In this document: positions 1,081 through 63,285 of the stretch, one piece after another
How the letters are laid out: every line of letters begins with the position of its first letter
Position numbering within the stretch: position 1 is the stretch's first letter
Assembly (NCBI GenBank): GCA_030295235.1
Contig: AP026151.1
Location: forward strand, 496,001 to 560,000
Length of the DNA stretch: 64,000 nt
Origin: Fistulifera solaris
Lineage: Eukaryota; Bacillariophyta; Bacillariophyceae; Naviculales; Stauroneidaceae
Direction: 5' to 3'
Program-made: the position numbers and the translations under genes
Notes under the pieces: model-generated
Told to the model about the DNA's origin: nothing
What the model saw: only the letters and a program-made list of their open reading frames with translations
The model's database searches: none

Positions 1081-1962
1081 TTAAAAGATGACTCCCACAC
1101 CTTCTACTGTGTGAAATTTCTTTTGCAAAATCGAGCAATACGTCGGCCAAATATTCTTTTCCAGCACTTGCGCATTCGTCAAGACGGGTTCGACTTTGAC
1201 GGGAATATCGTCTTGCACCTTCAAGACCCCCGCCAAGGGCGTCTGGTCCGTCGGTGGTGTCGTGACAAAGGAATCGAGATTCTGCGATGGCACAACCATA
1301 TGACGCAAGGGAAACCAACCGTACTTGTCATCTTGATCAAAACCGGTGTGTACGGCGAGGCGCAAATGGGGAAACCGGGGTGTCACAAAGGGTTCGCCTG
1401 TGGAAGTATCAAAGATACGAAGTTCTGGAATGACGTTATGGACCAAATTGACGTAATTGACGTCGTTGGTGGCTTCGGGCGTAATCAAAATGTTGGCTTT
1501 GGTCAATTCCAAAGCGGCCTTCAAGGCTTGTTGAGCTTTGGAAGGGTCCTTTTGGCGACCAAAGGATCGAGCGTGTACAATACCAAGCCCGATTTGGAGC
1601 ACGCGAATTGTAGAACCATCTGTCGAGAGAAAAAAATTAAGGGTGTGAGAGGAGATTTCTCTGTAAGAATTATTGCAACTCAACTCAAACTCAACTTGTT
1701 CGGAAAAGTGTTGCGGCATCCACGAAAGTACGACATCACCAGCCGTAAAACCCATTTCCAAGAAACCGATGGCCAATGACTCGGAATAATACTGCACATG
1801 ACGTGTCGTCCAAGTAATGTTCTTGTGTTCGTAACGCACGACATCAAGATTGGGATTCGCCGACGCGAGGGCATCGACTTGACTGCCGCCGGCCGCCGCA
1901 AACGTTCGTATCGCAACGCTTCGTCGTGCCCGTAGAGCATTTGCCGCAATCGATCGAAGCAT
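1081..1962 (-). CDS. Truncated AMP-binding (acyl-CoA synthetase-like) protein, mitochondrial
   Basis: The start at 1962 gives an Arg/Ala/Ser-rich, acid-free N-terminus (MLRSIAANALRARRSVAIRT), a typical mitochondrial presequence. The body resembles only the N-terminal part of the ANL (acyl-CoA synthetase) fold, for example GFTAGDVVLSWMPQHFSEQ and LTKANILITPEATNDVNYV. It ends after about 290 residues without the ATP/AMP-binding P-loop (S/T-S/G-G-T-T-G) or the C-terminal lid, so ligase activity is doubtful. Intron 1620-1695 (76 nt, GTTGAG...ACAG) joins FSEQ to MVLQFACSKSGLVLYTLD. Downstream the frame must shift by one at the T4 run 1550-1553 (A4 in the gene); one more base gives VAKKDPSKAQQALKAALEL. 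Could be a diatom-specific non-catalytic paralogue. Family call is by resemblance; function unknown. Confidence 0.65.
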   Translation of the reverse strand: MLRSIAANALRARRSVAIRTFAAAGGSQVDALASANPNLDVVRYEHKNITWTTRHVQYYSESLAIGFLEMGFTAGDVVLSWMPQHFSEQVEFELSCNNSYREISSHTLNFFLSTDGSTIRVLQIGLGIVHARSFGRQKDPSKAQQALKAALELTKANILITPEATNDVNYVNLVHNVIPELRIFDTSTGEPFVTPRFPHLRLAVHTGFDQDDKYGWFPLRHMVVPSQNLDSFVTTPPTDQTPLAGVLKVQDDIPVKVEPVLTNAQVLEKNIWPTYCSILQKKFHTVEGVGVIF

Positions 1963-2294
1963 ATTGAGAGAAAAAAGGGATGAAACGTAATCAATTCGAC
2001 GAAATGAGAATGAGTTGATGCTTTTGTTGCTGTTATTTGCAAATAAATAAAGCGCAACAAAAAACAAAAACGTCGGCACCTAACGGACGGAGGACATACC
2101 TCATACTTGGAGGACTCAAAGTTTCATTGATTCCCGAATATGACGTGGCCTTTTAGGTTATGAGTTCATCACTTCCACCCAACCAACTTTTTTTCTCGTT
2201 CGACAGAAAAACGAGCATTTCGTCGTTATTGTTGTTCTGTTCATCCTGTGAGAGACATAGCACCCAAAGAATTTATTTCATAGAATATTCAAGC
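1963..2294. promoter_or_regulatory. Divergent intergenic region, AMP-binding protein / HAS1
   Basis: 332 bases between two divergently transcribed start codons, so it should contain both 5' UTRs and promoters. No TATA box, repeat or upstream coding segment was convincing by eye. Confidence 0.4.
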
Positions 2295-3945
2295 ATGGGA
2301 AAGAAAGAGAAAAGCAAAGCCTGTCCGATTCTTCGCAACAACCGCCAGAGGTTGTCGAAGAAACGCGAAAACGATCGGCTTCCGTCGACGAAGAACAAAA
2401 ACGAACAAGAAAAAGAGCAAACGGCAGTCCGAGAGTTCCGAATCATCAAATGCCGACGAAAAGCCCAATTTCTTTTCGAAAGAGCTCTTTTCCGAGTTGC
2501 CATTATGTGAAAAGACACAAAAGGCTTTGCAGGAAATGAAGATGGAACGGATGACGCAAATTCAATCACGAGCGATTCCGGCCTTATTGACCGGTAAAGA
2601 TGTTATTGGGGCGGCCAAGACCGGTAGCGGTAAAACGCTGGCCTTTTGTTGCCGTCCTTGGAATTGTTGCATCAGGCCAAATTTTCCTCAAAAAATGGGA
2701 CGGGTGTCGTCGTGATTACGCCCACGCGCGAATTGGCGATGCAAATTTACGGTGTCTTGCAAGAATTGTGTCAATATCATAGTCATACTTATGGCTTGAT
2801 TATGGGTGGAGCGAATCGCAAAACGGAGGCGGAGAAATTACAGAAAGGTGTCAATTTGATCGTTTGCACACCGGGTCGACTTTTGGATCACTTGCAAAAT
2901 ACGAAAGGCTTCAATTATCGAAACTTGTTGGCGTTGGTCATGGATGAAGCCGATCGAATTCTAGAACAAGGATTTGAGGATGATTTGCGAGCTATTTTGA
3001 AGCTACTGCCCAAGGAACGACAAACGATGTTGTTCTCGGCGACACAAACCAAGAAGGTAGAGGATTTGGCGCGTTTGTCTGTGAATTTTGAAAATTCCAT
3101 CTTTGTGGATGTCCCCAATGAAACGAAACTGGCGACTGCGGCGGGTTTGGAACAAGGATTTGTTACCTGTCCCTCGGATCAACGGTTTCTGTTGCTTTTA
3201 ACCTTTCTCAAAAAGAACAAGAAAAAGAAGATTATGGTTTTCTTTTCGTCTTGTAACTCTGTCAAGTTCCACGGAGAGCTGCTCAACTATATCGATGTAC
3301 CCGTCATGGATATCCATGGTCGACAAAAGCAAGTCAAGCGCACAACAACCTTTTTTCAATTCTGTAAGGCCAAAACGGGCACCTTGTTGTGCACCGATGT
3401 CGCCGCCCGTGGTTTGGATATTCCCGAGGTAGACTGGATCATTCAATTTGATCCGCCGGATGATCCGAAAGAATACATACACCGCGTGGGTCGAACGGCT
3501 CGAGGCGCCACCGGCTCGGGACGCGCCTTGTTGTTTTTGACTCCCGAGGAAACTGGATTTCTCAAGTACTTGCAAGCGGCCAAGGTGTCATTGAACGAAT
3601 ACGAGTTGCCCAAAACAGCCAACGTTCAGTCGCAATTACAACGTTTGATTGAAACCAACTATTATTTGAATCGGGCCGCGCGTGATGCGTACCGCAGCTA
3701 TTTGCTGGCGTATGCGAGTCACTCGCACCGCGATATCTTCAACGTGCACGCATTGGACTTGCAGGCGGTGGGCACCGCCTTTGGTTTCACGACACCACCG
3801 CGCGTGGATGTGGCGTTCGGGAAAGAATCAAAACGTAAAAAAAGTGGTCAGTGGGAAAAAGGCAACGGGTACGGGACACGCTTTCTCGGCTTCCAATCCG
3901 TACGGAAAACGGAGCAAGGATGATAAGCGGCAATTCTCTCATTAG
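2295..3945 (+). CDS. HAS1: DEAD-box ATP-dependent RNA helicase HAS1/DDX18
   Basis: Nucleolar helicase needed for 40S and 60S ribosome biogenesis. After a lysine/serine-rich N-terminus the helicase motifs occur in order: AAKTGSGKT (I), TPTRELAMQ (Ia), TPGRLLD (Ib), MDEADRIL (II), SAT (III), ARGLD (V) and HRVGRTAR (VI). The C-terminal [20 protein letters not shown] followed by [11 protein letters not shown] is specific to the HAS1/DDX18 subfamily, and the end [12 protein letters not shown] matches its usual tail. The frame breaks four times: one base appears missing at A4 2310-2313, A5 2410-2414 and T4 2644-2647 (restoring [11 protein letters not shown]), and one extra in A7 3838-3844. Length is then normal, about 550 residues. 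An essential gene with four breaks, all at homopolymer runs, argues for sequence error. Start ATG 2295 chosen as the first one giving an in-frame basic N-terminus. Confidence 0.93.
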
Positions 3946-4069
3946 TCTACACAATAGTATTAGTAAAATAGCGACGGTTTTACCAGGAAATCAAACAATA
4001 CAAACGTAGTTTACTTGAACTTATTCTACACAGAAACACCTTTTCACCTTCATTGTTCTCTTATTGTGT

Positions 4070-4873
4070 TCACGCACGATGCCATTTTGCACGGACGTTG
4101 CGAATCATTCTCGTGACAAAGGAAGTGATGATTCCCGGACGACGACGAGGAGGAGGAGACACCGGACGCGTGTAGTAGACGGGTGTGAATACGACCCCAG
4201 CCGGCGCATCCTTCTCCGTGACCGGCTCGACGTGACGCTCCAAGTGATCCGCCATATCTCGAATGATGCTCACCAATTTTTGCGTCCAGCGAATTTTGAC
4301 TTGTTGGGCTTGCGGACGAATGGCTTCCAAGGCGGCTTGTACCGATTGTAAGGCGTAGGTTCCTGTGCGAGACGCACTCTTTTCAATCAGATTCTCCAAA
4401 CGCTCCATTTCATCAAAGACGGCTCGTTCCATCGTTTCGAGTGAGTGTACTGCAGGAAGTTGCGGAAGCGACCATTTCGAGAAAGGTTCTGCCACAGTTG
4501 TCTTCCAGAATTGCAACGAACGCTCTCCCGTCGTTTGTGCACTTTGTTCGATCTGCAATTCGAGCTGCTGCATCGCCGAAAAGACCGTTTGCTCCCATTT
4601 TTCCGCACGGCTTTGGCTATTATCAGAGAAATCAATCTCCTTTTTCGGAACCTCCTGCAACGACAATTCACTCAATTCCAATTTGGCTTGCTGCAACATG
4701 GCCATGGCGGACACCATCCCGTCTTCTTCCTCCTTACGGAATCGACGAGGAATCCAGCCTTGCTGATCCAAAGCTGCGGAAGAATGAATACCGGTAGGCG
4801 CAAAGCGTTGCATCTGCGGAAGCAAGCCTTCCGCGACGATGAAAGAGAAAGAAACGCTCAAAGCAATCTTCAT
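4070..4873 (-). CDS. Unknown protein with N-terminal signal, likely plastid
   Basis: 267 residues, single uninterrupted frame. The N-terminus is hydrophobic (MKIALSVSFSFIVAEGLLPQ) and is followed by QRFAPTG, reminiscent of a signal peptide plus short transit peptide; no strong ASAFAP site is present, so plastid versus secretory destination is open. The middle is helical and charged (about residues 45-200), with two similar segments: EKWEQTVFSAMQQLELQIEQ and ETMERAVFDEMERLENLIEK each followed by a Ser/Thr-Gly segment, an apparent internal duplication. The C-terminus is basic and proline-rich (RPVSPPPRRRPG). No known domain recognised. It lies convergent with HAS1 (about 124 bases apart) and tandem with NSF. 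Confidence 0.75.
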   Translation of the reverse strand: MKIALSVSFSFIVAEGLLPQMQRFAPTGIHSSAALDQQGWIPRRFRKEEEDGMVSAMAMLQQAKLELSELSLQEVPKKEIDFSDNSQSRAEKWEQTVFSAMQQLELQIEQSAQTTGERSLQFWKTTVAEPFSKWSLPQLPAVHSLETMERAVFDEMERLENLIEKSASRTGTYALQSVQAALEAIRPQAQQVKIRWTQKLVSIIRDMADHLERHVEPVTEKDAPAGVVFTPVYYTRPVSPPPRRRPGIITSFVTRMIRNVRAKWHRA

Positions 4874-8184: not shown

Positions 8185-10967
8185 ATGACAGTCACAACAC
8201 CTCTTACTGGAGGACGTGCTCGATCATCTTCGGTCGGAACCGATTCATTCAAAATATCCCCTTCCTATTCTCCGTTGCGACCCGAACAACTGCCTCATCA
8301 CCACTCCTCGTATGGAGCCACCACCGCGCCCTTGTTGCCACTCCCGCAAGAAGAACCGGTACAGCCACTTCGATTCTATCGCATTTTGCAATATTTCGTA
8401 TACGCGACCATCAACGTCGTGATTGGTGTACCGGGATTGTACGGATACGCTTCCGTCATCTTTCATCATCCCGTCTTTCAACCGCACATGAATGCGTTGA
8501 GTAAATTGGTGCTATTGAGTAGCTTCTTACATCAATTGGCGTTTACTTTATGTTCAAGTTTACCGTTTGCGATTGGCATGGTGCAGGATGCCGGTTTGAT
8601 CTTTTGAGTTCCATGAGTACGTCTGTGGCGGAACAATTGACCGAGTATTATTCTGCGGAACAAGATCATCATCTGAGAGAACGCGCCATTCTCAGTACAA
8701 CCATTGTACTGTTATCGGGAGGTACCGCGTGTTTGGGATTGGTCCTCGTCATTATGGGCAAATTCAAATTGGCGAATGCGGTCGCCTATTTGCCCATGCC
8801 CGTTGTTGGAGGATATCTGGCGTTCATTGGTTATTTTTGTTTTCAAGCCGGTGTCGCCCTCTGTATCAGTCAACCCATGACGCGCGTCGAAGATTGGGCT
8901 TTGTTATTGCAATGGCCTCTCCTCAAATTGGCGTTACCGGGATTGGCCGCGGCGGTGGTCTTTACGTGGATTGCGCGCAATCCGAAGTATGATGCGTGGT
9001 TGCCCTTGGCTATGATGGCCGTTCCGGCGGCCTTTTATATCGTCGTGTGTGGCATTACGCGAGTTGGTTTGGACGGTGCTCGAGAACAAGGCTGGGTCGG
9101 ACCCGAATCACCCAGTGTGCCGGTATCGGAACTCTTTCATTTGGTCGATTGGTCACTGGTGCATTGGTCTTGTGTCGCGGATCTCTTATTGACTTGGGTT
9201 GGAATGGTCTTTGTGGTGTCTTTTGCGTCGTGTCTCGATGTTGCGGCCATTGCGATGGATATGGGAGAAGCACTGGATACGAACAAGGAGTTGGTCACCG
9301 TCGGGATCGGGAATGTATTGTCGGGGCTTGGATTTGGATTCACGGGGTCGTACATTTTTTCGCAAACAATTTTTACGTATCGCACCAATGTTCATTCCCG
9401 TTGGATTGGTGTCCTCGTCATGGTGGCCTATTTGTACATTATCACATCACCCGTCAATCTTCTACAAGTGTCTCCTCTCTTCTTCTTGGGTTCGACGCTG
9501 ATTTTCATTGGTTATGACTTGTTGTACGAGTGGCTTTTATTGATTCGACACAAGATTTTCCGCTCGGAGTATTTGATTGTGTGGGCCACTTTCTTGGCCA
9601 TTCAAGTGGTGGGAATGGATGCGGGGATCGTTTTGGGTATTTTGGTGAGCTTGGTCGATCATGTTGTGACTTCGGCAAAGCTGGTGCAAGTGACTCGCGT
9701 TTCCAAAAAATCACGTGCCGTGTGGTCGCCCCTCGAATCCAAAATATTGAATGAGCAAGCTTATCATTCCCAATCACCCAAAGTGATCGTTCTTGAAATT
9801 AGTGGCACTGTTTTCTTTGGAAGTTCCTTGCAGTTATTTCAACGAATGTTGGAAGAAACTCATTTGAGTTTCGAGAATGATGATGCGCATCACCATCCGT
9901 TTCATCAACCGGGATGGCAATCACCGCATACCAATTCGACCGCCTTGACACAAATCCGATCCCCCAAATCACCCAACGGACACCACCATAATGGCGCTCC
10001 ACCATCACAACATCGAGTCGTCTTTCGACCTCCGCAGTTCATCGTCTTGGATTTGACCCAGTTATCCGAATTGGATGCGTCGGCGTGTCGTGGTTGCTTT
10101 TTGCAGTTTGTGAGTATCTGCTCCAAACACAACGTGTTAGTGTGTGCGGCCGGACCGTCCCAACGCACGGATTGGATGTTGCGCAGTCACAATGTATGCT
10201 ATTCGACCGTTCCAGAAGAAGAAAAGCTGAAAGCGCAATGTTTACAATCCCACTATGCCACGACACAGCTCAATACGAAAATTGACAAGATGCTCGTCTT
10301 TGTTACGACGCTGGAAGCACTGGAATTTTGTGAAACGACCTTATTGCAACGGGCACATCGCACAACGGTCCTGTCCCCACTGCAACGACGCATACAACAA
10401 GGACAAACATTGACGGTGGCATCAATATTTCAACTCCTGTTGGATGCAACGGAGGAAGAAGAGGAATTGCTGAAATTGTTGGAGAGTGGTCGCTATCATG
10501 ATGAAATTTCTTTTCAAGCGGGTGATGTAGTGTTTGCGAAAGACACTCACGCCGATGCCTTTTATGTGGTTCTTCAAGGAAGTGTGGCGATAGTGTCCAC
10601 GTCCAGCACCCATCGCCGAAAATCCTTTCGGCAACCCTTTCCGGGGACGAATGCTGGTGCCCTGATAACACCGACATCACCCACCACCACGGCGACGACC
10701 CCCCGCCTGGACCCAAAATTAGCGGCTCACGCCACGAGTGTGTGGCCGACCGGAGGCGTCTTTGGATTTGTCGATTTTTGGTTGCAACGCCCTCGGGTCT
10801 TTCAAGTCGTGTGTTGCACCCAATCTCCTACTATATGCGCCAAAATGACGCATTCCCATTGGAATCTGTTGCAACAAGAGAATGAAGCACTCGCGGCTTT
10901 GGTGCAGCGCGTTTTATTAAATGCGAGCGTCGCGGATTTGGCGAATTGTACTTGTAGTGAAACCTAG
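8185..10967 (+). CDS. SulP/SLC26-like transporter with STAS and cyclic-nucleotide-binding-like domains
   Basis: Multi-pass SulP transporter core (about residues 70-500; hydrophobic helices such as VVIGVPGLYGYASVIF, KLANAVAYLPMPVVGGYLAF and TWVGMVFVVSFASCLDVAAI), then a STAS domain (SPKVIVLEISGTVFFGSS ... FIVLDLTQLSELDASACRG) and a cNMP-binding-like beta-roll (GDVVFAKDTHADAFYVVLQG ... GGVFGFVDFW). This layout matches the fungal SulP-STAS-CNB group that includes yeast Vsb1 (vacuolar basic amino acid storage), rather than simple sulfate permeases, so substrate and vacuolar location are inferences. A His/Pro-rich linker interrupts the STAS domain (about 9880-10020). The first 140 residues are in another frame; one extra T at the T4 run 8602-8605 joins DAGLIF to LSSMSTS. 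About 926 residues when joined. Confidence 0.88.
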
Positions 10968-11001
10968 TAAAAGAAGGAATATAGAAAAGCCCAAGCATCG
11001 A

Positions 11002-11563: not shown

Positions 11564-13287
11564 TCAAGAAACAGGCTTCTTCCACTTCTTCGCAGGCGAT
11601 GGGGGTACCCCTCCTAGCCAATCCGTGTTCAAATGCTCTCCGCCAGCCGTCTGCTTTTCTTCCCGAGTCGCAGGTTTCGACCACCGTCGTTCCTTTTCGA
11701 CTCCTAACAAAGCATCACTGTCTCCGCCAATCCATCCGCTGTGTCGCATGCCGGGTACACCGCCTTCCGGTTTGTCTGGAACTCCATAGAGTGACTCGTC
11801 GGTGGAGCTAGCTGTTGTCGTCGAGTCCGCGACTGGCGTTGGTTTGGCGACTTGGACTGACTTTAATTCCGAAGTCACTGTGCTATCGACCGTCTTTTGA
11901 GTGGGTGGGCTTGAATATACTTTCTCGGCTGTTTCAGACACTTTGGGTGCTGATTGTTGTGAAGACACATCAATCGCTGCACTGTTCGCTTTCGCCCCGG
12001 ATTGTTTCCACGTTCGGACCGGAGACAATATGGCCGTACCACCAATCCAGTCACTGTTGGCCGTTCCTGTCGCGGCTGGTTTTGTCCATTTTTGGTGGGC
12101 GATGCCGGTACTCCTCCCAGCCAGTCCGTGTTCAAGGGTTCTCCTCCAGCCTCGTGCTTTTCCTCCTTAGTGGTAGGTTTTGACCACCGTCGTTCCTTTT
12201 TGACGCCGAGTAACGCATCACTGTCTCCGCCAATCCACCCCCCGTGTCTCATACCCGGCACACCGGCTTCTGGTTTGTCTGGAACTCCGTATTCGTAATC
12301 TTGTTTATCAGCTGCTGTTGTCTCACTAGCTTCGGGAGTTTCATCGGGGACATCACGTGGCAGTTCTTTCTCGCTCGCTAGTTCTACCTTGACTTCTGGT
12401 TTAGGTGGTAGAGCAGATTCTTCTTCGATTTCGCGGGGTTCTGTATGACTCGAAACTGGTAGCTGAGATACATGTATGGATGCGACTGAATTAGTCACCG
12501 CATCTATAGCTGTTGGTTCAGTAGGGGATTGCTCATCCAGAGTCGTCGTGGTTGCTTTCGCTCCCGATTGTTTCCATTTTCGGACCGGAGACAATATAGC
12601 CGTCCCACCAATCCAGTCGCTATTCAGTTTTTCGGTCGCGGCCGGTTTCGTCCACTTCTTCACGGGCGATGTTGGAACTCCTAGCCATTCCGTACACAAG
12701 CGTTCTCCTCCAGCCTCGTGCCTTTCTTGACGAGTGGTGGGCTTCGACCATCGTCGCTCCTTTTTGACTCCCAGCAACGCATCGCTATCTCCACCGATCC
12801 AACCCCCGTGTCGCATCCCTGGCACGCCGCCTTCGGGTTTGTCTGGAACTCCGTATTCATAGTCTTGCTTGTCCGTCGCCTCACTGGGTTCGGGAGTTTC
12901 ATCCGGGACGAGCGGAGGCGCCGGATCGTTTTTCACGACAGGTACATTGATTTCTGGCTGCTCAGCCGTTGTTGCTATAGGGCTTGATTCTGTCTCTTTT
13001 ATTTCTGCCCCGGTCTTGACCGGCGAAGCCACCACAGGACGGTCGCCTTTGAGATCTTCCGGCTTTTTCCATTTCCTCGTGGACGCAGCGGGACTTCCCA
13101 GCCATTCCGTATTCAAATGTTCTCTCTCGTGATGATCAGATGCTACCGGCTTGGTCCATTTCTTTTCCTTGGAGACTCCCAACATGGCGTCACTGTCTCC
13201 ACCGATCCAGCCTCCATGACTCATGCTGGGGCTCTTCTCGGGCTTGTCTGGGACGCCATAAGGGCTATCGTTTGTTTCGTTTGTCAT
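11564..13287 (-). CDS. Internally repeated protein with WIGGDSDALLGV modules
   Basis: About 574 residues with at least four copies of one module. Each has GVPDKPE, then GxxGMRHGGWIGGDSDALLGV, KERRWSKPTT, an EAGGExLxTxWLG segment and a PTSPVKKWTKP-type end; a WIGGTAILSPVRKWKQSG segment follows in two copies. Acidic Ser/Thr/Pro-rich linkers separate modules. The GVPDKPE starts lie near plus-strand positions 13245, 12845, 12282 and 11780. There is no signal peptide, membrane segment or known domain; the conserved Trp/Gly/Asp pattern suggests a short peptide-binding or assembly motif. The frame shifts once, at the T5 run 12089-12093 (one base short), restoring SPTKKWTKPAAT. The DNA of the copies is also similar, so array length may vary between alleles. 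Function unknown. Confidence 0.82.
11750..13270 (-). repeat. Coding tandem repeat, four unequal copies (400-560 bp)
   Basis: Four in-gene copies recognisable at DNA level by a shared stretch reading TTTGTCTGGAACTCCGTA or near variants on the plus strand (about 12847, 12283 and 11781, diverged at 13240) and by the CACTGTCTCC(A/G)CC(A/G)ATCCA block that follows the GATGC/GTCAC segment. Spacings between copies are about 400, 560 and 500 bases, the differences lying in the linkers. Confidence 0.7.
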
Positions 13288-24486: not shown

Positions 24487-25729
24487 ATGGTTGTTCACCG
24501 AGAAAGAAGAAAAAATAAGGCATGTACGCGCACATCGACTGCACCGTTGCGTGTCACCTTGCAATATGTTACCGCTCTTATTCTTATGCAATTGACGATG
24601 GGGTTCTCTCCTCATGTCATGAACCGTTTCGTACTCAAACGAAGTTCGCCGACTTCTGGTAAAGTGCTGTACGGTGGAAATCAACCATTAAGGACATCGT
24701 CGACGGTTCAGTTTATGAGTCCGACGGAAGAATTTGTCGATGCTCAAACAACAAATAGCTCCGATGGATTCCCTCCTCCTTTTCAGTCACCTTAGAGAAA
24801 GATGACTACTCGTACAAAGAAGCAGTCCTGAGAACGCTTGGATGGGTTAGTTTAGCTGGTATTTTCGGTTGTGTTCTCTGGGCCGTGGGCGGGTCGACGG
24901 TAGGGGAAGAATTTTTTGCGGGTTATCTTGTGGAGCAGAGTCTTTCGGTAGACAATCTGTTCGTTTTTCTTTTGCTCTTTGAGTACTTTAAGGTTCCTGT
25001 GAAACTGCAGGATCGAGTGTTGAATTGGGGTATTTATGGAGCTATTATTATGCGGGCTGTGATGATCGGTCTCGGAGCGGCTGCCTTGCAACAGTTTCAT
25101 GCCATCTTGCTAGTGTTTGCGTCCATTCTTATCTACAGCTCTGCGAAATTCTTTATTGGAGGCGAGGAAGGGGAGGAAGAAGACCCTAGTCAAAACACAA
25201 TTGTCAAGTTTTCAAGGAGTCTTATACCATCTACCGACGAATTTCACGGCAAGAAGTTCTTCACTATCGAGGATGGATTAAAGAAAGCGACTCCATTATT
25301 TATCTGCATGATTGCTGTTGAAATCAGCGACGTTGTCTTTGCCGTTGACAGCATTCCTGCCGTTTTTGGTGTCACCGAGGTAAGTATTCTCTATGACGTT
25401 GATCACTCACTCGTCTAGTGCCGATACCGAATCTCATCTTTGCTTTCATCCTCCAGAATCCGCTGATAGTTTTCTCCTCTAATATGTTTGCCATCATGGG
25501 TCTACGGAGCATGTATACAATTCTGTCAAAGGCTGCAACAGATCTAAAGTATCTCGAGCCAGCAGTCGCTTTGGTTTTGGGCTTCATCGGGTCGAAAATG
25601 GTTGCTGAGTACTTTAATTACGAGATACCTACCAATATTGCACTTGGTGTTGTTGCCTCACTCCTTATCTCGGGAGTTGGAGCGTCAATGTGGGATAAGC
25701 AACAACGAGAGGATGACCAGAATGAGTAA
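24487..25729 (+). CDS. TerC-family integral membrane protein, plastid-directed
   Basis: TerC/ALX-type protein; plant AtTerC acts in thylakoid biogenesis. N-terminus has a hydrophobic stretch ending LMQLTMGF-SPH, a plausible signal peptide with transit-peptide start. The body has about seven helices and the family signatures FFAGYLVEQSLSVDNLFVFL, VLNWGIYGAIIMR, AVEISDVVFAVDSIPAVFGVT and SSNMFAIMGLRSMY. The acidic residues in SVDN and EISDVVFAVDS are the proposed metal ligands. Intron 25380-25456 (77 nt) after GVTE. The frame breaks once at T4 24780-24783; one more T gives PPFSVTLEKDDYSYKEAVL. About 390 residues, normal for plastid TerC. Confidence 0.92.
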
Positions 25730-25976: not shown

Positions 25977-26905
25977 CTAGAGAATAGAGCAAGGACATCC
26001 GGCGCCTGTCTGTGGTGTATTCGACGAATTCTGCGCATTTCGTGAGTTGTTGGCTGATGTTGAACCACTGGAAAGCTTCTTATCTTTCGCCTCGTTAGTT
26101 GATTCAAGGGCGGGTTTTATCGAGACATTGATCGGAGTGGGATGTGTTTTGAAACTTGGAATTTGAATATCCTCTAACGTGCGTGAATCTGGCATAAGAA
26201 ATCCTTTCCCCATACAAACCAATCGTAAATGTTCGCCACTCGCACATGAAGGAGCATCTTTGAAAAAAAAAGGCATACGTCAAAAATGGCGATTTGTGAA
26301 TGAGTAGCGGCAACAGCGTTACTTACCTTCAGGCCAGGCTGACAGTAGAGCCCCCTTCACATCACCGACTGTGTCGCTAGGATTGCATTCAATGGTTACA
26401 GCTAAGCCGTCTCGGTTAGCAAAAAGAAATCGCAGCGTTATTTTGTTCGGGTCGTATTTGAAAGATGGTCGTGACTTTTTGACGATGAAATGATCGGGGT
26501 GGATGGGCTTGCCGTCGCCTCGTCAAGTTTTGCTACTGATGCCTCCAAGGTATCATTTGCTTCGTTATCTGTCTTGTTATTCTCTTTCATGTTTTCCGAA
26601 CTCGCCCGTAATCCATCCTGAGTAGAAGTTGGCGCACCGTCACCTACAAATCCTGAGCTTTTCTGGTCACGATTAACGTCTCCAGTTGTACTTTCGGTAG
26701 CGGCACCACTATTCATATTCGGATGTTTTTCTAAGACTTCCTCCTGGTTCAAATCGGAAGCAAGAAGAGTAGTCTCTATCTCGTCCGCTGTTGAAGATTT
26801 GTCCTCGGTCGTGTCTGTTGCTGCTTTGTGGTCTCTTTCCACCCCCACTGCGGCCCCACTTTCGGCCTCTAAAGCTTTTTCAGGCTTTTCTGATTTTTCC
26901 ATCAT
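25977..26905 (-). CDS. Membrane-anchored ubiquitin-fold (MUB/UBL3-like) protein with CaaX box
   Basis: Acidic, disordered N-terminus (about 150 residues, Glu/Ala/Thr/Ser-rich) followed by a ubiquitin-like fold: ITLRFLFANRDGLAVTIECN, DTVGDVKGALLSAWPE, EHLRLVCMGKGFLMPDSRTL and INVSIKP. This matches the MUB/UBL3 (Rad60-SLD-like) group. The end GCPCSIL gives CSIL, a CaaX box with Leu, expected to be geranylgeranylated, with Cys at -6 a possible acylation site. MUBs recruit E2 enzymes to the plasma membrane in plants. Intron 26258-26326 (69 nt) joins WPE to DAPSCASG. One frame break at the T5 run 26476-26480 (one base short) restores SSSKKSRPSFKYDPNKIT. The long acidic N-terminus is unusual for the family. 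First ATG 26905, alternative 26902. Confidence 0.82.
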
Positions 26906-34791: not shown

Positions 34792-37215
34792 ATGCGAAAG
34801 ACGGTGCTTCTCCTTGCTTGTATCGGAACGTGCTCGGCCTTCCAACCAACAACCTTCATTCAAAACAAAGGGCAACCTCGACCTTTATTCGCCGTCGAAA
34901 AGCCTAAAAACGAAGAGCCTGAGGAAAAGAAATTTCGTTTCCCTCGATTTCTGAAACGTTGGCGTAATTATGCGGCAATCACTGCTTTTTCGTTGACGAG
35001 CGTCGTAACGCCTTTGGCAGCCCAGGCATCGGCTCCAGTCATGGCGATACCAAAGGCGGAACAGCGTGACCCCATAACGGATGCACTGATCGAGCGTCAA
35101 CGCCGTCAAACAGTAGAAGCACAGCAGGAGCTTCAGAGAATGGCGAAGCAAGCTCGAGAGATAGAAGCTACGCAAGGGGAAGCTGCTCGTTTGAACTTTG
35201 AAAAAGAGTATTATCGCCAGAAGGAGGAAGAAGCAGCCGCAAAGAAAGTTGGATTGAGGCAGTTGAAACTGGATCTTCTCGAACAAGGTATTGATCCATT
35301 TACCGACATTGAAGGTCAGCGGCAGACTATCTTGTATGAAAAGGGTGTTGACTTGGCCGAGGTTTCCGGTACACCGTTCAATCTAGAAAAGGAGTTGGCG
35401 AGGCGATCCCCGAAAAAGACGGTTGCATTTCAAAAAGCCCCTCATCGTAAAATCATTGCGTGCATGGTTCAGGAACTGAACAACCGTGGAGAGGATCCGA
35501 TCGAATACTTTCAAAAGCATCAAGATAAGACTAGCAAAATCATGGAGATGCCGTATGAGAAGGCCGCCCTACTTGCTCAGCAATTTTCCGCGAATCTGGA
35601 ACAGTATGGACAGGTTCGTAAGCCTGCTGAGGGTGAAAAGAGCGTCAAGGAAATGATGGTGAAAGATCCCGCTCAGATCAAGGCGGAGAAAGAGGCTTTG
35701 GCACAAGCGGCGAAATTAAAAGCTAAAGCGGAGAAAGAAGCTGCCAAGGCTGCCGCCAAGGGAGAAAAAAGAAGCCAAAAAGGCTCAAGCGGAACTCGAG
35801 AAAACGGCTAGTGCCGCACCTGCAATGGAGACTGAGGCTCTTGGCTCTGACCTCCCCGCTGACGTTGTAGACGACGAACAATCTTACGATGATGGTGCTA
35901 TATCCAGCATCCCGGCGCCCGTTCCTTCAAAGGCAGCGACGGAACAGAAAATTCCCCCATCGTACCCGTCTCTGCAACCATCGTGACTGTTGCTGGAGGT
36001 GGGTATGCCATCAACTTGATACGCGAGAAACGCGCTGAAGCAGAAGCGGAGCGCCAGCGTCAGTTCAAGTTGCTCATGGGGGTAGATGACGATAATGATG
36101 AAGATGACAGTCTAGATACCGACTACAGCCCGCAGAAAACCATACAAAATAATGCACCATCGGGATCGAGCTCGGCAACGAAGAAGGAGGTGCCGACCTT
36201 TGAACCGCAAGACGCGCCTGCGCCCAAAAAACGACGCCTTGGAATTAAAGGTGTGTTTGGCAAAAAGGGCAGTGGGCGCGCGACTGACTTGAGTACCTTG
36301 GTCGGACCTGGTGGAAACTATCCACAGTTTGCCGCCCTTTTGGCAAAGATCTTGACTTTTGGAGCGCCTGGTCGGTTCCCCACCGTTGTGAAGCTCCCAG
36401 GAGGAATGCCGATGGATGAATTTGATTTAGAGAAGGCCAAGCAACTGCTTACTGAAGCGAGAGAGTCGTCGGGTCTGGAGCTGGCAGACTCGGCGGAAAT
36501 CTTTGCGAATGTTGTAAACTGCATGTTGATTGATATTGTCGATTTGGCATCCACGTCATTGAAAGAAAAAGGTGATGTTACTGTCAAATCCATCAATATT
36601 GTTGTTGACTTTATGAACCATGCTGCTTCGCTTTATGAGTCTGTAGCCGAAGGTGTGGTCATCAAACCAGTTGTCTATGAGGGCGATTTAAGCAAGGCCA
36701 AGTTAGAACAGTTGTATAGCACGTACGCTGTTTCTGGAATGATGGGCATGTTTGGAGGTGATGGAGGGACTGCTGTATCGGAAGACTTTGATAGCCGAGT
36801 AGCCTTACTGCAAGATGTATTCCAAATTAACGAGAAGAAAGCTGAGGGACTTATGATGAAGGCTGTACAAAAGAATATGCTGGAAATGATGAAAGAAGGG
36901 AAAAACTTGGAAGGCATGGAAGAAATGTTGAAGGGATTGGGTGGTATGGACGGAATGAACGGATTGGCGGGTTTGATGGGCGAAGACGGTGAAGGCCCTA
37001 GTCCTGAACAGCTAAAGGAAATGTTGATTTCTCTCAAGCAAATGAAAGATTCTGGATCGATTCCGCCAAACGAATTCGAAGAAGTGAAGAAGCAGTTCAA
37101 AGAGGCTTTTGGCTCCAGTTTAGATGATGTGGTAAAAGACGCGAGCAAAGATGGCGAGTTGAGTAGCACGGAGAAAGAGTTGTTGGAGCTAATGAAGGCA
37201 ATAATGGATGACTAG
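34792..37215 (+). CDS. Large plastid-targeted protein of unknown function
   Basis: Starts MRKTVLLLACIGTCSAFQPT, a textbook diatom plastid signal (CSAF cleavage). A second hydrophobic stretch ITAFSLTSVVTPLAAQA about 65 residues in looks like a thylakoid transfer signal or membrane anchor. A long charged helix (residues ~100-340, Ala/Glu/Lys/Gln-rich) precedes an acidic linker and a C-terminal helical domain with LSTLVGPGGNYPQFAALLAK, VKLPGGMPMDEFDLEKAKQL and a Met/Gly-rich segment. Total about 807 residues. Two breaks: one base too many in A6 35765-35770, and one missing near 35930-35935 before SDGTENSPIVPVSATIVTVA. The second hydrophobic run TIVTVAGGGYAINLI could be another anchor. No family recognised. 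Confidence 0.75.
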
Positions 37216-37349: not shown

Positions 37350-38916
37350 TTATTCTGGCGATGAGTCAATCATGCCCAAGTCAACCAATATACGATATGC
37401 GCGCTCCTTCAAAGGAAGTGCGATGTACTTCTTCTGCAACTCAGCCTCCTCGTCGGGGCTGAGAGGTTGCCGTCGGTACTGTTTCTTCTTTCCGATGGTT
37501 GAGCTCATATCGTCAATTGATGTTTCACTGTTTCCTTCACCTGCAGTAACTTTTTCCTCATTGACTGGCATCGGAATGTCCATCTCTGGTACCTTTTCGT
37601 GGTCTGGTATTGTAATCTCAGCTTGCAAGGTGTCTGAATCTTCAACTTTTCCAACGCTCACTGGCTCAATCTTTGTGGCTTCAGTCAGAGGCCTTTCTTG
37701 CTTCAATCGTTCTTCAAGCAAAGCCCTTCGAGCCGCTTCTTCTTCCTTTACCTTTCTTAATCGTGTCTCTTCTTCTTTTAGTCTTTCTTCCAATAAAGCC
37801 CGACGAGTGGCTTCTTCTTTCAGAACCGAAGCCGCTTTAGCGGTCTTTTGATATCATCTTCCTGTAGAGGGTCATCGACACTCAGGTTGTTCTTGCTCTT
37901 ACCATCAAGTTCATCTGCCAACCCCTTGCTTCCTTCATTGTTTTGCGTGTAATCTACTGACTCAGTCCCTTTCGTTGATATCTTGATGACTTCGTCTGTT
38001 GCTCGTACTTGTTCTTCCATGGTCTCATCTTTCTTTACCGACATTTTCCCTTGATCCATTGTGGCATCCTTCTCCACTTTTTTCTCCTGCAAATCTTCCT
38101 GGATTATTGGGGTAACTTTTTTGACGGCTTTAATTCCTTTGGGTTTGGTAGTTGTTGGGCTTTCTTTCTCGATAATCTCGGCAGAGGGATCCGAAATGAC
38201 TCTTACGTCTTCCTCGATCAGAGGCACACTAGATGTTACAAACTTCTCGGCATCATCTGTCTCGGAAGCTTTGGCAGTCTTGTCACCGCCAAAAGTTGCT
38301 CCAATTCGCGAAAAGCTTCCTTGGAGATCGACGACGGCAGAGGCTGCACTTGCAACTCTGAAGTAGTAGGAGCACTTTTTTCTTTCATTTCATCTTCGTC
38401 ATCGCTGATCGGAGGTACCAGCGACAGCCCTAATACCGTGCCCCCTCCTGCAGCAAGCATGATGACTCTGCGTTTGGTCCAGACAGTTCCTTTTTTCGAC
38501 GAGACCGGAATAGTGGCTAATTGAGTATCTCCATTGACGGTAGTCGATGTCAACTGCACCGTTTCTCGTAGTGCGATGCCATTCGAAGACGCTCGCAGTT
38601 CTTCGGTCGTTGTCGCGTCGTCTTTTGGAAAAAGTGCGCCGACTGGTCGAGGAAATGTGAAGGATGCAGCGAATAAAAGAGATGCCAATGCCCGTCTCTT
38701 CTTCTTGTTTGCTGTTGGACGAAACCACGGTGGTAAAATCGCCACCAGTCGATGACGCCATTTTCCTGTTCTATCTGCATCAATTTCCTCGTTCGCCGTA
38801 GTCATGGGTAAAGAAGAAAAGTCCGACACACGAGGTGAAAGATATGACGGCACGAATGCGTGAGAGCTTTGCAGAACGCATAGCAACAGAACTAACGCGC
38901 TTCTAACTTTCATCAT
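37350..38916 (-). CDS. Plastid-targeted coiled-coil protein of unknown function
   Basis: Begins MMKVRSALVLLLCVLQSSHA-F-VPS, a plastid-type signal. Two hydrophobic segments follow, ASLLFAASFTFPRPVGALF (possible thylakoid signal) and RRVIMLAAGGGTVLGLSLVP (membrane anchor). The rest is acidic and Lys/Glu-rich with a heptad-like region RRALLEERLKEEETRLRKVK that is repeated (EEATRRALLEERLK, EEAARRALLEERLK), and a compact C-terminus SPDEEAELQKKYIALPLKER with AYRILVDLGMID. Two one-base gaps are needed, at A4 38291-38294 and T4 37846-37849; with them the frame is continuous over about 522 residues. Tail-to-tail with the preceding plastid gene and similar to it in layout. Confidence 0.72.
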
Positions 38917-40188: not shown

Positions 40189-41601
40189 TCATTTATTGAA
40201 TCCTTGTCCCATGACTGGAAGCTTTGGAGTGAGTGGAAGAGCCAGCCCTTCGTTCGCAACGCGTCTGTGGATCTCAGCGCGAAGGCTTCGGATGACTTCC
40301 ACGGGTCGTGCAAACGGCCCCGAAGCGTTGACAGTTTCCTGAAGATCAGCAATTTCTTTTTCGCTCCACCCCCTAGACCAACCATCTGTGAAATGTAAAC
40401 GCTGTTTTTGCAAAGAGGACAGTCCGGTGTAAGACTCAGAACGGCCGCGACTTGTTCTCGATCAAGGCTGCAGACAACTTCTTGGTTTTGGCTACCATAC
40501 AGAATACCGTTTGTGCGCTGGAGCTTTCCGATCTTTACAACAACTCCACTTTCAGTCTTTAGATCAACAAGAGCACCCAATCGAGCCTCAAGAATCTGAA
40601 TGCGTGCGACCGACTCACGGACTACGAAACGTAAATTATCTCCTGGAGGACAACTATCTGACATTTCAACAAGATCGGAGAACTCTGGAATTGTGAGGCG
40701 CACCGGCTCTTCTCCCGCATATTCGTGGCTCTGAATCAATGGCGACGAAAGTAGTTTTACATACACCACGCGTAGGTCCTCAGGAGATTTCTGATCCGGC
40801 TGAAGACCAATCTGGATTCGGTGACTGCCCAAAACTTCAATTGCAAATACCAGGCCACCCTCACTATCGGGACCGGTCGCTGGCTCCAACCCGATGATAC
40901 GGATGCCACTAAGCTCCTCCATTACAGCAACAAGCTTTTCATAGAATTCTTGTACTTCATCGAGACGCTGTACTTCGCTCTCGAGTTTTTCGTTTTCGAG
41001 GCGCAACTGTTCAAGGTGGGTCGGGTTTACGTTCTCGTCAGCAACTTCTAGCTTTTCAATTCGGACTTCCAATTCCCTGGACTCATTTTGAACTTTGGCA
41101 ATTTCTGCTTTCAATGACGCAGCTTGCTGTTGCAAAAGAAGCAGCTGCTCTTCTTGATGTGCCAGTTCTTCTTCATCGACGTCGGTGTCATCTTCCATCG
41201 AGTCGTCTTCCATTGCTGTATTCATGTTTTCCATCTCCTTCATGAGTTGATGCAAATTTTCGCGTTTCGTAGTGAAATGCGCGTACTTGCTTTGCAAGTC
41301 AGCCTTCGCCGTTTGAAAGTTGTGAATTTGTGCGACCAGATTCGAAAAGACTTCTCGCTGTCGCATTTCCAATGCTGCTTGCTCCTCTTCTGTTGGTGCC
41401 TCGATACTCGGACTTTTCTTTTTCCGCTTCAGCAATGAAAGCGTGAAGGATGCGACGTTTCAAATACTCATCACGAACCTGCTCATAGCGAGGCAAAAGA
41501 GTCGCGGAATCGAAAGGAGTGGTATGAAATTGCTCGTCGATATCAAAGTCTTTCAATGATTCAAGGGTCTCTCGAACCTTGCGCAAGTCTACGGAAGCCA
41601 T
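40189..41601 (-). CDS. Coiled-coil protein with possible RWD-type C-terminal domain (KNL1/Spc7-like candidate)
   Basis: Starts MASVDLRKVRETLESLKDFD. Long coiled coil from about residue 60 to 220 (MRQREVFSNLVAQIHNFQTA, QEEQLLLLQQQAASLKAEIA, EQLRLENEKLESEVQRLDEV), then a mixed alpha/beta part: EELSGIRIIGLEPATGPDS, LVFAIEVLGSHRIQIGL, VRLTIPEFSDLVEM, and a helix VVRESVARIQILEARLGALV. Coiled coil plus an RWD-like sheet ending in a long helix is the plan of KNL1/Spc7-type kinetochore proteins, but resemblance is weak. A CPLCKNSVY segment near the end is odd for that family. Two breaks: one extra A around 41420-41430 and one missing C in C5 40369-40373, after which EKEIADLQETVNASG and the end MGQGFNK follow. 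About 470 residues. Confidence 0.6.
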
Positions 41602-49833: not shown

Positions 49834-50159
49834 CGAATCTGGTGCTCGGAAGTCACCTGTTTCAGAGATGCCGTCGTGGCTTTTAAGAACGATAGGTCCA
49901 TTAACAGAAGAAATACAGTGAAAATTGATGATATCAATTTGAAAAAATAGTGAAAAAAGCGGTCAAATGTCAAATCTAAAGTTGGCCTCTGTAACTTTGT
50001 TATGACGAAAGACAAAGTAAATGATATGAAAGAGACGGGCGTTTTTAATCAAGTGAATTCAAGCCGTCTCAAGGATAAATATATTGAATGTCTTCGATTA
50101 CTTTCGGAGTCGCATGCATTATATTGACTGATGAAAGATGAAAACTCTTTCACCTACAG

Positions 50160-53073: not shown

Positions 53074-53753
53074 ATGTCGTATATGCATGCACATAATAAT
53101 CTGCTCCGACGAGACTTGGGCGGCAAGCTGTTGAAAGCGGCAAAATGGCGATATCAAGGGGGACGGCCCGCCGCTGAATTTCACACACACGTTCACAGTC
53201 TTCTCCTTCGACAAGATCAGAATAGACGCGATCATGAGGAAAAATACCGCATGCAAGCTCTGCCTCAACCATTGGGTATTTCGGTAGCATCCTATCATTC
53301 CAGTGCCGCCAATGAGAAAGCTGTGGCAATTATCTTGGGATTGGGTGCCGTGTCGGCGGCGTCTTACGCAGCATCGAGTGGAATTAAAGCTTACAATGAG
53401 TGGAAGGCATCTTTACCAGAAGAGCCACCCGTGATAGAAAAGGAGGAATTGAACGAAGAGCCGAAAAAGAAAAGGAAGAAGAACAGGAGAAAGGTGATAG
53501 AGAAAACATTTTCGCGAAATGGTTTGGGGCTGGTGTCGGTGCAAAATATTACGAAGGAGGCTTTGAGGAAGAGATGACCCGTCGCGAAGCTGCTCTAATC
53601 CTCGGTGTCCGTGAATCTAGTTCCCCTGCTCGAATCAAGGAAGCTCATAGAAAGCTTCTTGTTTTGAATCATCCTGATACGGGTGGCTCGACCTACATTG
53701 CTGGAAAACTTAACGAAGCAAAGGAGCTTTTATTGAAAGGCAAGCGAATGTAA
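53074..53753 (+). CDS. PAM18: PAM18/TIM14-like J-protein of the mitochondrial import motor
   Basis: Co-chaperone that stimulates mtHsp70 at the TIM23 channel. C-terminal J domain: [59 protein letters not shown], with the HPD motif and the TRREA-LILGV start typical of TIM14. One membrane helix precedes it ([20 protein letters not shown]). The N-terminus is much longer than usual (about 85 residues before the helix). One base appears missing after 53460 (GAGCC); with it the linker reads [20 protein letters not shown] and runs into [20 protein letters not shown]. Mitochondrial location from the family. About 226 residues. Confidence 0.9.
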
Positions 53754-56408: not shown

Positions 56409-58164
56409 ATGTCAAACAAGACTCAGCATGTGCTGGCTTATACAATCCGACCACCGTTAACAGCCGGCGACAGGGGAGAGCCTTCCAAATCTATTTTGAA
56501 AGATGTCGAGCGAATATTTGCCTTGATAGAAGATGAGAGACATTTGATTGCCCATCGTCTTTACGAAAGTGTTCAACGTCGTATCCGTCAAATAGAGGAT
56601 CAACTGCCAGTGAAGAAGAAAAGCCGTAAGTTCAAAGGATTGCTCAAAAAGAAAATGCAGCTCTTACTAAAGAACAAGAGGAACTACAACTTGCTAAGAA
56701 TATATTGAAAGAAAAGGAGAGTGAGCTTCATAAACTGGAGGTAGGTTCTGCGTGTTGTGTTTGCCCAAGCCGTTGTGCTTAACTCACGGGCAATAAAATA
56801 TTGACTTTTTGTGATAGAATGTCAGCAGAATTTTTTATGGCGCGCTCAAAAACCTAAATACAGACGAAGACTGGACATTTGCGTCGCTGCACTTTGGAAT
56901 AACAACCTACTATCGCCGCGAGGAGGACGGAAGTTTAAGTGTCAAACTGGAGGGGGGAGCTCACGGGTGTTCCGCTTTTCGAACAGATTGCTGTACTACG
57001 GGCTGGGGATTTACACTATAAATGGGTACCATTTTGTTCGTCGTCAATGATAATAGCTCAGTTGGGGAAGCTTGACATTATAAATTGGTTCATGATCGGG
57101 ATCCCTCAGTTTGGATTGGCGAGAGATGGTTGCTATCGAGCCATTGGTTGCGACAACATGTCTGAAGATGGTAGTATTATCATCGCTGGACAAGGTATTA
57201 ACGACATAATGCCAGGGGATCATCCTCCCGAAGATCCCTTTCTTTCTAATGATCCTGCCGTTTTTGCACTCAACATCCCTCCGGCACCGACAAAACGCGG
57301 TAACGGTCGAATGACCATTCGGAAGTTTGAAACTGTTGTAAACATTACATCACCCACTTCAGCCAAAACCAGAATAGTGGCCAACTTGAACCCAAATATT
57401 GCTTTTCTTTCTCAAGGGATCATCGATTTTGCGTTGAAACATCTCGCGGGGGTCGTATTAGCCAAGCTTCAGTCGGCAGCTAAAAGGTTGTGAAAAACCC
57501 AGTCACAAACCATCATGCTCAACAAATGCGCGAAGAGCCCGATTTTTATCAGACATGGTTAATGGCGAAATTCAAAGCGTTTTGTGATGAGAAAGGATGG
57601 GAAATGCCGAGGGTGTCTGCGTTTACCGTAAACGAAGAGCAGCTGGCACACAACCGCAGGTATACAGATCGCAAAACAAGGAAGCTCAATACGTTTGGTG
57701 GGCATGATAGCTTCGTTTCGGATAGAGTTGATCAAGCGTCCGTACAAAGCGCGTGTAATATGAAACCAGAAAAGACTGACGACTCAGTTTCGGAGATCAC
57801 CGCGAAGTCCAGTGTGTCGATGTGGCAAAACAATCCGGTCTCCAACTACATGCAAGCTGTTAAGGTTCGCAAAACGCAAGAAAAGGAAGCCAAAATCGCA
57901 CAGGTCCGACAGCGCGTGACGGATATGATGAAGCCCAAGATGCTATCATTTGAGCAACAAGATCGTCTTGAGGAGCTTCGTCTTGCCAAACAGCGTAGAA
58001 TGGAGGGGATGGGCTTGTTTTTGCGCGATGACTCGGCAGCTGCACGTACAGCTGCAGGTTCAGCTACAGATACTTCACGAAGCCTATCACAACATCGTAC
58101 TTTCAAAAGAAAGTCAATTTACAGCTATACGAGCATGGGAAGTGGACTCGGATTTCTGTTATGA
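56409..58164 (+). CDS. START-like lipid-binding domain protein
   Basis: Two exons, 56409-56742 and 56819-58164, with intron about 76 nt (GTAGGT...ATAG). An N-terminal coiled coil (LKDVERIFALIEDERHLIAH ... LQLAKNILKEKESELHKLE) leads into a START-type domain: VSRIFYGALKNLNTDEDWTF, HFGITTYYRREEDGSLSVKL, LHYKWVPFC, GKLDIINWFMIGIPQFGLAR and MTIRKFETVVNITSPTSAKT. Helix ALKHLAGVVLAKLQSAAKKV ends the fold. Breaks: one base missing at 56631-56632, one G too many in G6 56952-56957, one A missing in A4 57482-57485. The last part (QQDRLEELRLAKQRRMEGMG) is helical. Its stop overlaps the next start by four bases, see that entry; possibly a single fused gene. Confidence 0.72.
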
Positions 58165-61354: not shown

Positions 61355-61932
61355 TTTGCGCGAGGATTTCGTTTAATGGTGGAAGAAGAGCTTGTATTAG
61401 GAGTTTGCGTCGTCTCGAGAATGAAGAATGAAGAAGCTACTTGTCGTGCGATGTCGTGATGATGATGTGGACGATGATGGCGGAGGTTTTCTGTTGTTTG
61501 ACGTACTTGCGTACTTTTCAACGTAACTTTCAGTACCAAGGCGAGAAAGGTAAGATGCGTGAAGAAGAGTGATCGACGGACGAAGGTCTGGTTGTTGCAT
61601 TTACTTTCATTTTAAAAACATTCTGAATTCCAGATTCCTTTTAAAACTCCCCGCCAGAGTGTGGAGCGCACGGTACGGTACCGGTACCAGTACCGGTACC
61701 GGTACTGTAGGTCTAATTCCCGATTGAAGTTCAGACATGACTGAAATTTCATCGACAACGGCGCGTAGACGACTACGTAAAAATCGCGTACGTCACCGCA
61801 TATCTTTCTCCCACGTGAGCGGCCAACGTGCGAACGCAAACGCCGCATCGTCCGGCCCATCGTCGCCCAGCAGCAAACAAACCGTCTCTCTCACCATTGA
61901 TTAGCACGGCAACATACACAAACAAATCAACC
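61355..61932. promoter_or_regulatory. Divergent intergenic region, 2Fe-2S protein / AtpC, with GGTACC array
   Basis: 578 bases upstream of two plastid protein genes. A 36-base run of GGTACC/GTACCG units at 61672-61707 is almost fully self-complementary and could form a hairpin or be a multi-site binding element. Confidence 0.5.
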
Positions 61933-63285
61933 ATGAGATTCCTTGTCACGGCCGCTCTTCTTGCAGTTGTATCTGCTTTCACAACGCAACAACCTGGCTT
62001 GGCGCACCGCACGCGTCAAGCGACCGTCGTTTATGACGGTAAAGCCAATGGTGAGTTTCGTTTGTTGCGTGTATTAGTAGTAGTAGAGCGCCAAAAGAGA
62101 ATGACCTTTGAGGTGAATTATACACAATATACTGGTAGAGAAATAAATTGAAAAGCAAAGAGATTAGGCAATTTGAAGAGTGAATAAGTGACGACGATGA
62201 AAGCAGATGATGCACATTGACCGTTGCGTGAGGCATTCTCGTTAGAGGGATTGAAGTGCCGTTCCTATTCGCGATCCTTTGGAATCCAAATTCAAATTTC
62301 GAACCTTTTTTCCAGAGCACATCTCTCACACTCTTCATTTCTTTTCTCTTCCAGCTATCCGCGATCGTATCAAGAATGTAAAGAACACGGGAAAGATCAC
62401 CAAGGCCATGAAACTGGTGGCGGCGGCCAAAGTACGACGTGCGCAAGACGCTGTCTTGGCCACCCGTCCTTTCTCGGAGACTCTTCAATCGGTGTTCGGC
62501 GGTTTGATTCAGCGACTTGACGGAGAAGCTGTCGATCTTCCTCTTTGACGCAGCGTGAAGTCAAGAAGGTCACTCTCACCGTCATTACCGGTGATCGTGG
62601 TCTGTGCGGTGGATACAACTCCTTCATGATCAAGAAAGCCGAAGCTCGTTTCGCGCAACTCAAGAAAAGTGGAGTTGATGTCGATATGGTATTGGTGGGA
62701 AACAAAGGTATTAAGTACTTTCAGAGACGCAACTACCCCATCCGAAAGACCTTTCCGACCGGCCAGAACCCCAGCGCCAAGCAGGCCCTGGCTATTTCCG
62801 ATGAGTTGCTAAACACATTCCTTTCGGGTGAAAGTGATGCCGTGGAACTTTTCTACACCAAATTCGAGTCGCTCATTTCGTCCTCGCCCAGTGTGCGTAC
62901 TTTGGTGCCCTTCTCGGCTAGCGATATCACCCAGAAGGCCGACGAAGTCTTCCAGCTTACTTCAGACCACGGTGCCTTTGGTGTCACCCGTGAGGAATTG
63001 GATGTTGCCGCTCCCCAGGAGTTCCCCAACGACATGATCTTCGAGCAAGACCCTCTCCAGATTGTCAACTCCATCCTTCCCCTGTACTTGAACGGCCAGA
63101 TCCTCCGTTGTTTGCAGGAATCCGTCGCCTCTGAGCTGGCGGCCCGTATGCAGTCTATGCAGAGTGCCAGTGACAACGCTTCACAGCTTGCCAAGTCGTT
63201 GACTCTCGAGTACAACCGTGCTCGTCAGGCGGCAGTTACACAAGAGATTTTGGAGATTGTTTCCGGCGCTAGTGCACTTGAGTAA
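61933..63285 (+). CDS. atpC: Plastid ATP synthase CF1 gamma subunit
   Basis: Rotor shaft of the chloroplast F-ATPase. N-terminus [19 protein letters not shown] is the bipartite plastid signal. Exons 61933-62050 and 62355-63285; the 304-nt intron lies right after the presequence ([18 protein letters not shown]). Conserved: [39 protein letters not shown] and the C-terminal helix [20 protein letters not shown] with [15 protein letters not shown]. About 349 residues. I see no cysteine pair for thiol regulation between GQNP and LLNTFLSG; diatom gamma lacks the plant regulatory loop. One break at T3 62544-62546: one more T gives [13 protein letters not shown]. Confidence 0.96.

What the first reader, a model, noticed from the sequence alone, without database searches (positions are those of the whole stretch)
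1548..62547. Systematic one-base homopolymer errors break about half of the genes
About 28 one-base frame breaks occur in roughly 18 host genes. Nearly all sit at runs of A, T, G or C, and about two thirds look like one base too few (examples: 2644-2647, 8602-8605, 24780-24783, 28165-28168, 57482-57485, 59890-59894, 62544-62546; extras at 3838-3844, 33244-33249, 56952-56957). Essential single-copy genes are hit (HAS1, AtpC, PAM18), and protein similarity resumes at once after each break. That is the profile of uncorrected long-read consensus, not pseudogenisation. Automatic annotation of this assembly will split or truncate these genes. A biological alternative, widespread programmed frameshifting, would need a fixed slippery motif and none is seen.
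Basis: partly seen in the sequence, partly recalled or inferred. Interest (0 to 1): 0.72.

Follow-up and report, generated by a model that had tools for sequence, protein, structure and literature searches.

The report
Miscounted base runs breaking diatom genes
About half of the genes in this diatom window look broken only because the genome assembly miscounts short runs of the same base, usually by one base too few, which is an ordinary and well-known sequencing artefact.

Summary
Published guide-RNA sites and primers mark the genome as the allodiploid diatom Fistulifera solaris. Its second gene copy, on contig C26, is an internal control. In the window the window copy has 19 private one-base frame breaks (15 short, 4 long; three are weak), one ambiguous two-base site, and four breaks shared with C26; 18 of 35 hand-drawn gene units are hit. 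C26 carries 18 private one-base breaks and 15 of 35 hit genes, so neither copy is the decaying one. The missing-base rate climbs with run length: 1 of 3708 runs of three, 6 of 1044 of four, 13 of 297 of five, 12 of 60 of six. A published T6 in another gene reads T5 in both copies here. HAS1, plastid AtpC, PAM18/TIM14 and ArgJ are hit; AtpC is broken in both copies, 22 bases apart. Corrections: about 24 breaks rather than 28; the 'extra' at 3838-3844 is at 3853-3855; a few breaks are shared by both copies, more than chance predicts. No biology is needed; interest is low, but annotation of this assembly needs care.

The parts
50..53 (+). run longer by one than in C26 (gene 1-903)
1548..1554 (-). 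T run one short, beside a C/T difference between the copies (gene 1085-1970)
2644..2647 (+). T4 here, T5 in C26; HAS1 helicase, DEAD profile 1-33 then 32-167
3853..3856 (+). G run longer by one than in C26, near the HAS1 C-terminal end; reader placed it at 3838-3844
4447..4454 (-). two gaps in a ragged alignment; weak
8602..8605 (+). SHARED: T4 in both copies; frame of the sulfate-permease-type gene broken in both
12087..12093 (-). T run one short, beside a C/T difference (gene 11567-13295)
24780..24783 (+). T4 here, T5 in C26; TerC-family gene
26476..26481 (+). T run one short, beside a C/T difference (decoded coding piece 26312-26524)
28165..28168 (-). G4 here, G5 in C26; thioredoxin-family gene, profile 5-62 then 61-102 (second piece E=0.0045, below Pfam's cut-off)
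29614..29617 (+). G run one short; ArgJ, profile 35-75 then 75-377 (first piece E=5.6e-5, below Pfam's cut-off)
33243..33250 (-). two-base difference from C26 at a T run; which copy is wrong is not resolved; SnoaL-type gene
35764..35771 (+). SHARED: A6 in both copies, frame broken in both
35954..35958 (+). C run one short, beside an A/C difference
37969..37973 (-). one base short in a ragged alignment; weak
38291..38294 (-). A4 here, A5 in C26
40355..40390 (-). SHARED: frame change in both copies, exact base not located; the window copy alone gives it no support (0.0 nats)
41413..41418 (-). T run longer by one
53455..53460 (+). break before the J domain of the TIM14/PAM18 gene; alignment ragged, exact base uncertain
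56646..56651 (+). A run one short, beside a G/A difference
56952..56957 (+). SHARED: G6 in both copies, frame broken in both
57482..57485 (+). A4 here, A5 in C26
59890..59894 (+). A5 here, A6 in C26; tetrapyrrole-methylase-type gene, profile 8-25 (E=0.0073, below cut-off) then 28-115
62544..62546 (+). T3 here, T4 in C26; plastid-type ATP synthase gamma (AtpC); C26 copy broken 22 bases further on

Best explanation
The breaks are consensus errors in the assembly, not features of the organism. The base caller or consensus step miscounts short homopolymer runs, mostly one base too few, with a chance that rises steeply with run length; in coding DNA each miscount shifts the frame. Shown: both homoeologous copies in the same assembly carry similar numbers of breaks, mostly at different runs; the length dependence; contiguous profile matches across breaks; a published T6 printed as T5 twice. 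Inferred: the platform is a nanopore-type long-read consensus without effective short-read polishing, part of the error depends on local context, and the living genes are intact.
For: Second copy on C26, 80-95% identical per aligned block. In the window: 15 short and 4 long one-base events in the window copy, 12 and 6 in C26. Missing-base rate by inferred true run length: 2/14496 (2), 1/3708 (3), 6/1044 (4), 13/297 (5), 12/60 (6), 0/6 (7). Control: of 200 artificial one-base changes placed at random in cleanly aligned coding DNA, 194 were given the right copy and kind, 5 wrong, 1 missed. The copy called broken meets a stop sooner in 43 of 49 events (median 46 against 295 bases). Of 33 coding gaps longer than one base, 28 are multiples of three; one in-frame stop outside a shift was seen (at 149, beside a 20-base gap) in 49.7 kb of aligned coding. 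Profile continuity over five breaks. AtpC broken in both copies, 22 bases apart. Independent site: PMC13276009 Table 2 (section 6 read) prints gDDE2 with T6 for both homoeologs; here both read T5.
Against: Shared breaks: four in the window and one more called in the flank at -6094, three short and two long; the rates predict about 1.5 shared missing and 0.02 shared extra bases over 49.7 kb, so purely random error does not cover them and a context-dependent part is needed. In 6 of 49 events the copy called broken does not meet a stop sooner. The published T6 comes from an earlier NGS assembly; I saw no traces for it. Two other published runs, A5 and T4, read correctly, as the rates predict. No reads, cDNA or peptides were available.
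Confidence: 0.96

Rival explanations
1. One homoeolog is decaying: after hybridisation redundant copies collect frameshifts and become pseudogenes.
For: The genome is allodiploid, so one copy could be lost without harm; one-base indels by replication slippage also favour long runs (general knowledge).
Against: Both copies are broken at similar rates (18 and 15 of 35 genes); 11 genes are hit in both against 7.7 expected if independent, so partners are not spared; the codon-periodic pattern of differences holds on both sides of breaks; longer coding indels are 28 of 33 multiples of three and one nonsense change was seen. Loss of both plastid AtpC copies should not be tolerated by a phototroph (general knowledge).
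Confidence: 0.02
2. Programmed ribosomal frameshifting or RNA editing restores the frames in the living cell.
For: Four breaks in the window, and one called in the flank, are shared by both copies.
Against: The 37 private one-base events in the window are absent from the other copy, in some cases with 15 identical bases on either side (29614, 35201, 62543); the shared window ones go both ways (two short, two long) and lie at different bases with no common motif seen; a published site of the same kind is simply one T longer.
Confidence: 0.015
3. Real frame breaks of the strain sequenced, differing from the published strain.
For: The assembly differs from the published sequence at gDDE2.
Against: About one break per 2 kb of coding DNA in each copy (49 events in 2 x 49.7 kb) would mean hundreds of real frameshifts per Mb of coding DNA in both homoeologs, essential genes included.
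Confidence: 0.005

Closest known systems
Homopolymer indels in nanopore consensus (R9.4.1 and earlier)
   Same: Consensus indels in homopolymers that frameshift genes (PMC9262707, passages seen), with deletions prominent after long runs (PMC12007338, passages seen)
   Different: Seen here through a homoeolog rather than a reference; the platform of this assembly is not documented in what I could read
Gene-fragmenting errors counted as pseudogenes (Kastor, PMC12007338; Watson and Warr as cited there)
   Same: A tiny error rate breaks a large share of genes: in their example errors under 0.05% of the genome, pseudogenes 23.3% before and 5.6% after correction (passages seen)
   Different: Those are small genomes; here about half of the gene copies of a diatom, at about one break per 2 kb of coding DNA
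Long-read diatom assemblies before short-read polishing (PMC8147415)
   Same: Low identity and poor gene completeness from indels until polished (passages seen)
   Different: Other diatoms (Thalassiosira pseudonana, Phaeodactylum tricornutum)

Membership tests
Homopolymer consensus error | Events concentrate in homopolymers beyond their share of bases | tested here: met
   36 of 49 in runs of inferred true length 4 or more, which hold 6.1% of coding bases
Homopolymer consensus error | Rate rises with run length | tested here: met
   missing base: 1/3708 at 3, 6/1044 at 4, 13/297 at 5, 12/60 at 6, 0/6 at 7
Homopolymer consensus error | Deletions outnumber insertions | tested here: met
   34 short, 15 long
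Homopolymer consensus error | Independent sequence of the same site has another run length | tested here: met
   T6 published, T5 in both copies here; published A5 and T4 agree; 1 of 3 published runs differs; the published T6 was not checked by traces seen here
Homopolymer consensus error | Reads disagree with the printed run | not testable with these tools
   no reads held
Pseudogenisation of one homoeolog | Breaks concentrate in one copy and come with nonsense changes and longer frameshifting indels | tested here: not met
Programmed frameshifting | Break and slippery site conserved between homologous copies | tested here: not met
   not conserved for the 37 private one-base events in the window; the 4 shared window sites lack a common direction or an evident common motif

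The most novel reading that the evidence does not exclude
The few breaks shared by both homoeologs (8602-8605, about 35764-35771, 40355-40390, 56952-56957) are real recoding sites, or mark a DNA modification that systematically distorts base calling at those runs in diatom DNA.
Probability: 0.03. Interest if true: 0.55.

Novelty: not a real feature. Interest (0 to 1): 0.1.

Why it matters
Anyone annotating or mining this assembly will split or truncate about half of its genes and may count false gene losses or false divergence between homoeologs. Comparing the two copies gives a read-free way to measure such errors in an allodiploid assembly. It has no biological meaning beyond that.

Tried and rejected
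Two decoders were used. The first uses only the pattern of differences and stops (one search left out the stretch beyond 42.8 kb by a filter of mine; one search covers it) and gave 14 short and 5 long for the window copy, 12 short and 4 long for C26, plus one ambiguous site and one 20-base gap. It includes an extra base near 58017 that the second decoder, which adds codon usage, does not call; the second was used for the counts. One shared break called at 59615 was rejected: the window frame is open through it with a start and a leader. Support for the shared breaks kept is modest: 4.4 to 5.7 nats for the pair, and 0.0 for the window copy alone at 40357. Three of the 19 private window events (4454, 37972, 53458) lie in ragged alignments.

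Rows dropped: six alignment blocks beyond 84.5 kb (window numbering) with repeated matches were never decoded; three more outside the window (-9999 to -9441, -9437 to -8365, 85674 to 86582), decoded, were left out; the first two of them are rich in one-base differences. Two gaps of two, two of four and one of twenty bases are not in the one-base counts. Pfam was given 50 slots in five calls, 44 distinct fragments, not every ORF; the upstream sulfate-permease fragment gave no useful match, so the 8602 break rests on the decoder and on the downstream profile starting at position 64. The pattern also met two unrelated places on C19 and C20.

Searches for a paper on a long-read F. solaris assembly showed none among 15 listed of 623, 15 listed of 16,118 and 10 of 10; that such a paper exists is recalled only. 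A search for diatom nuclear frameshifting found 0 papers with all three terms.

Full report
What the window is. The window is C25:496001-560000 of a 51.7 Mb, 61-contig genome. A 1 kb probe from it matches C26 at 93%, and 23 blocks of the window align colinearly with C26 at 80-95% identity, apart from copy-specific stretches. A 23-base guide site published for both apt homoeologs of Fistulifera solaris (PMC13276009, sections 6 and 8 read) is found exactly twice, on C38 and C39; the dde guide site lies on C7 and C8; two gene-specific primers are found once each, on C38 and C8 (the first pattern also met two unrelated places). The genome is therefore F. solaris or a very near relative, a diatom described as allodiploid (PMC13276009; PMC5935921, passages seen). 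C25 and C26 are taken as homoeologs.

How the breaks were counted. I aligned the two copies and decoded the reading frame along the alignment from the codon-periodic pattern of differences, codon usage and stops, allowing one copy or both to shift. On 200 artificial one-base changes at random places in cleanly aligned coding DNA, 194 were assigned to the right copy and kind, 5 wrongly and 1 missed; this is an easier case than ragged stretches. In the window the decoder finds 37 one-base events: 15 short and 4 long in the window copy, 12 short and 6 long in C26. One two-base site (33243) is ambiguous, and four breaks are common to both copies. By gene units that I drew by hand, 18 of 35 are broken in the window copy and 15 of 35 in C26, 11 in both; three of the 18 rest on weak or ambiguous sites alone (units at 4198, 32707 and 53117).

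Why they are errors. First, the partner copy is about as badly hit, at other runs, in some cases with 15 identical bases on both sides (29614, 35201, 62543). Second, over window plus flanks and both copies the missing-base rate rises from 1 of 3708 runs of three to 6 of 1044, 13 of 297 and 12 of 60 at four, five and six. Many events that look like a lone missing base sit where a substitution makes the run longer in the short copy, and are then runs printed one short. Third, 28 of 33 coding gaps longer than one base are multiples of three, and one in-frame stop outside a shift was seen, which is not how pseudogenes look. Fourth, family profiles continue across breaks: HAS1 DEAD 1-33 then 32-167, ArgJ 35-75 then 75-377, thioredoxin 5-62 then 61-102 and TP_methylase 8-25 then 28-115, ATP synthase gamma 2-66 then 62-285; three of the short pieces are below Pfam's cut-off. 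Fifth, a T6 published for both dde homoeologs is T5 in both copies here, while a published A5 and T4 agree. I did not see traces behind the published T6.

AtpC. The window fragment is closest to chloroplast gamma chains. Both homoeologs are broken, 22 bases apart. A further pair of gamma genes lies on C1 and C2, the C2 match also in two pieces; I could not read these, and an intron is possible there. A photosynthetic diatom needs a plastid gamma chain, so two independent breaks are best read as errors; this last step is inference.

Shared breaks. At 8602-8605, about 35769, 40355-40390 and 56952-56957 both copies leave the frame, and a fifth such site is called in the flank at -6094. From the rates, about 1.5 shared missing and 0.02 shared extra bases are expected by chance over 49.7 kb; three and two were called. 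Each rests on 4.4 to 5.7 nats, and at 40357 the window copy alone gives no support. The excess suggests that part of the error depends on local context; the dde site, short in both copies, is of the same kind. The shared window breaks go in both directions without an evident common motif, which argues against recoding.

About 24 rather than 28 breaks; the extra base near 3838-3844 is at 3853-3855; 33244-33249 is a two-base difference; 8602-8605 and 56952-56957 are shared by both copies; the genes are not single-copy. That the platform was nanopore is inference from contig size and error type (PMC9262707 and PMC12007338, passages seen); no read data were held and no assembly paper turned up in the listings seen.

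Noticed in passing
42776-45513 and 47354-51263: Two stretches without a partner in the C26 region fetched. From the first, 43300-45100 occurs once in the genome and its two long minus-strand ORFs have no Pfam match; from the second, about 370 bases are similar (79-80%) to places on C34 and elsewhere on C25.
   Followed up: partly
L022:1-1636 (C25:486001-487636): Two neighbouring stretches align to the same C26 stretch, with many one-base differences: a duplication next to the window.
   Followed up: no
L014 (C25:580001-590000), window numbering 84551-92181: A block of about 2.8 kb seems to stand three times in tandem in C25 against one copy in C26.
   Followed up: no
1551 and 12091: Two missing-base events share the context TT-TTGGYG on the + strand, a slight hint of context-dependent error.
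   Followed up: no
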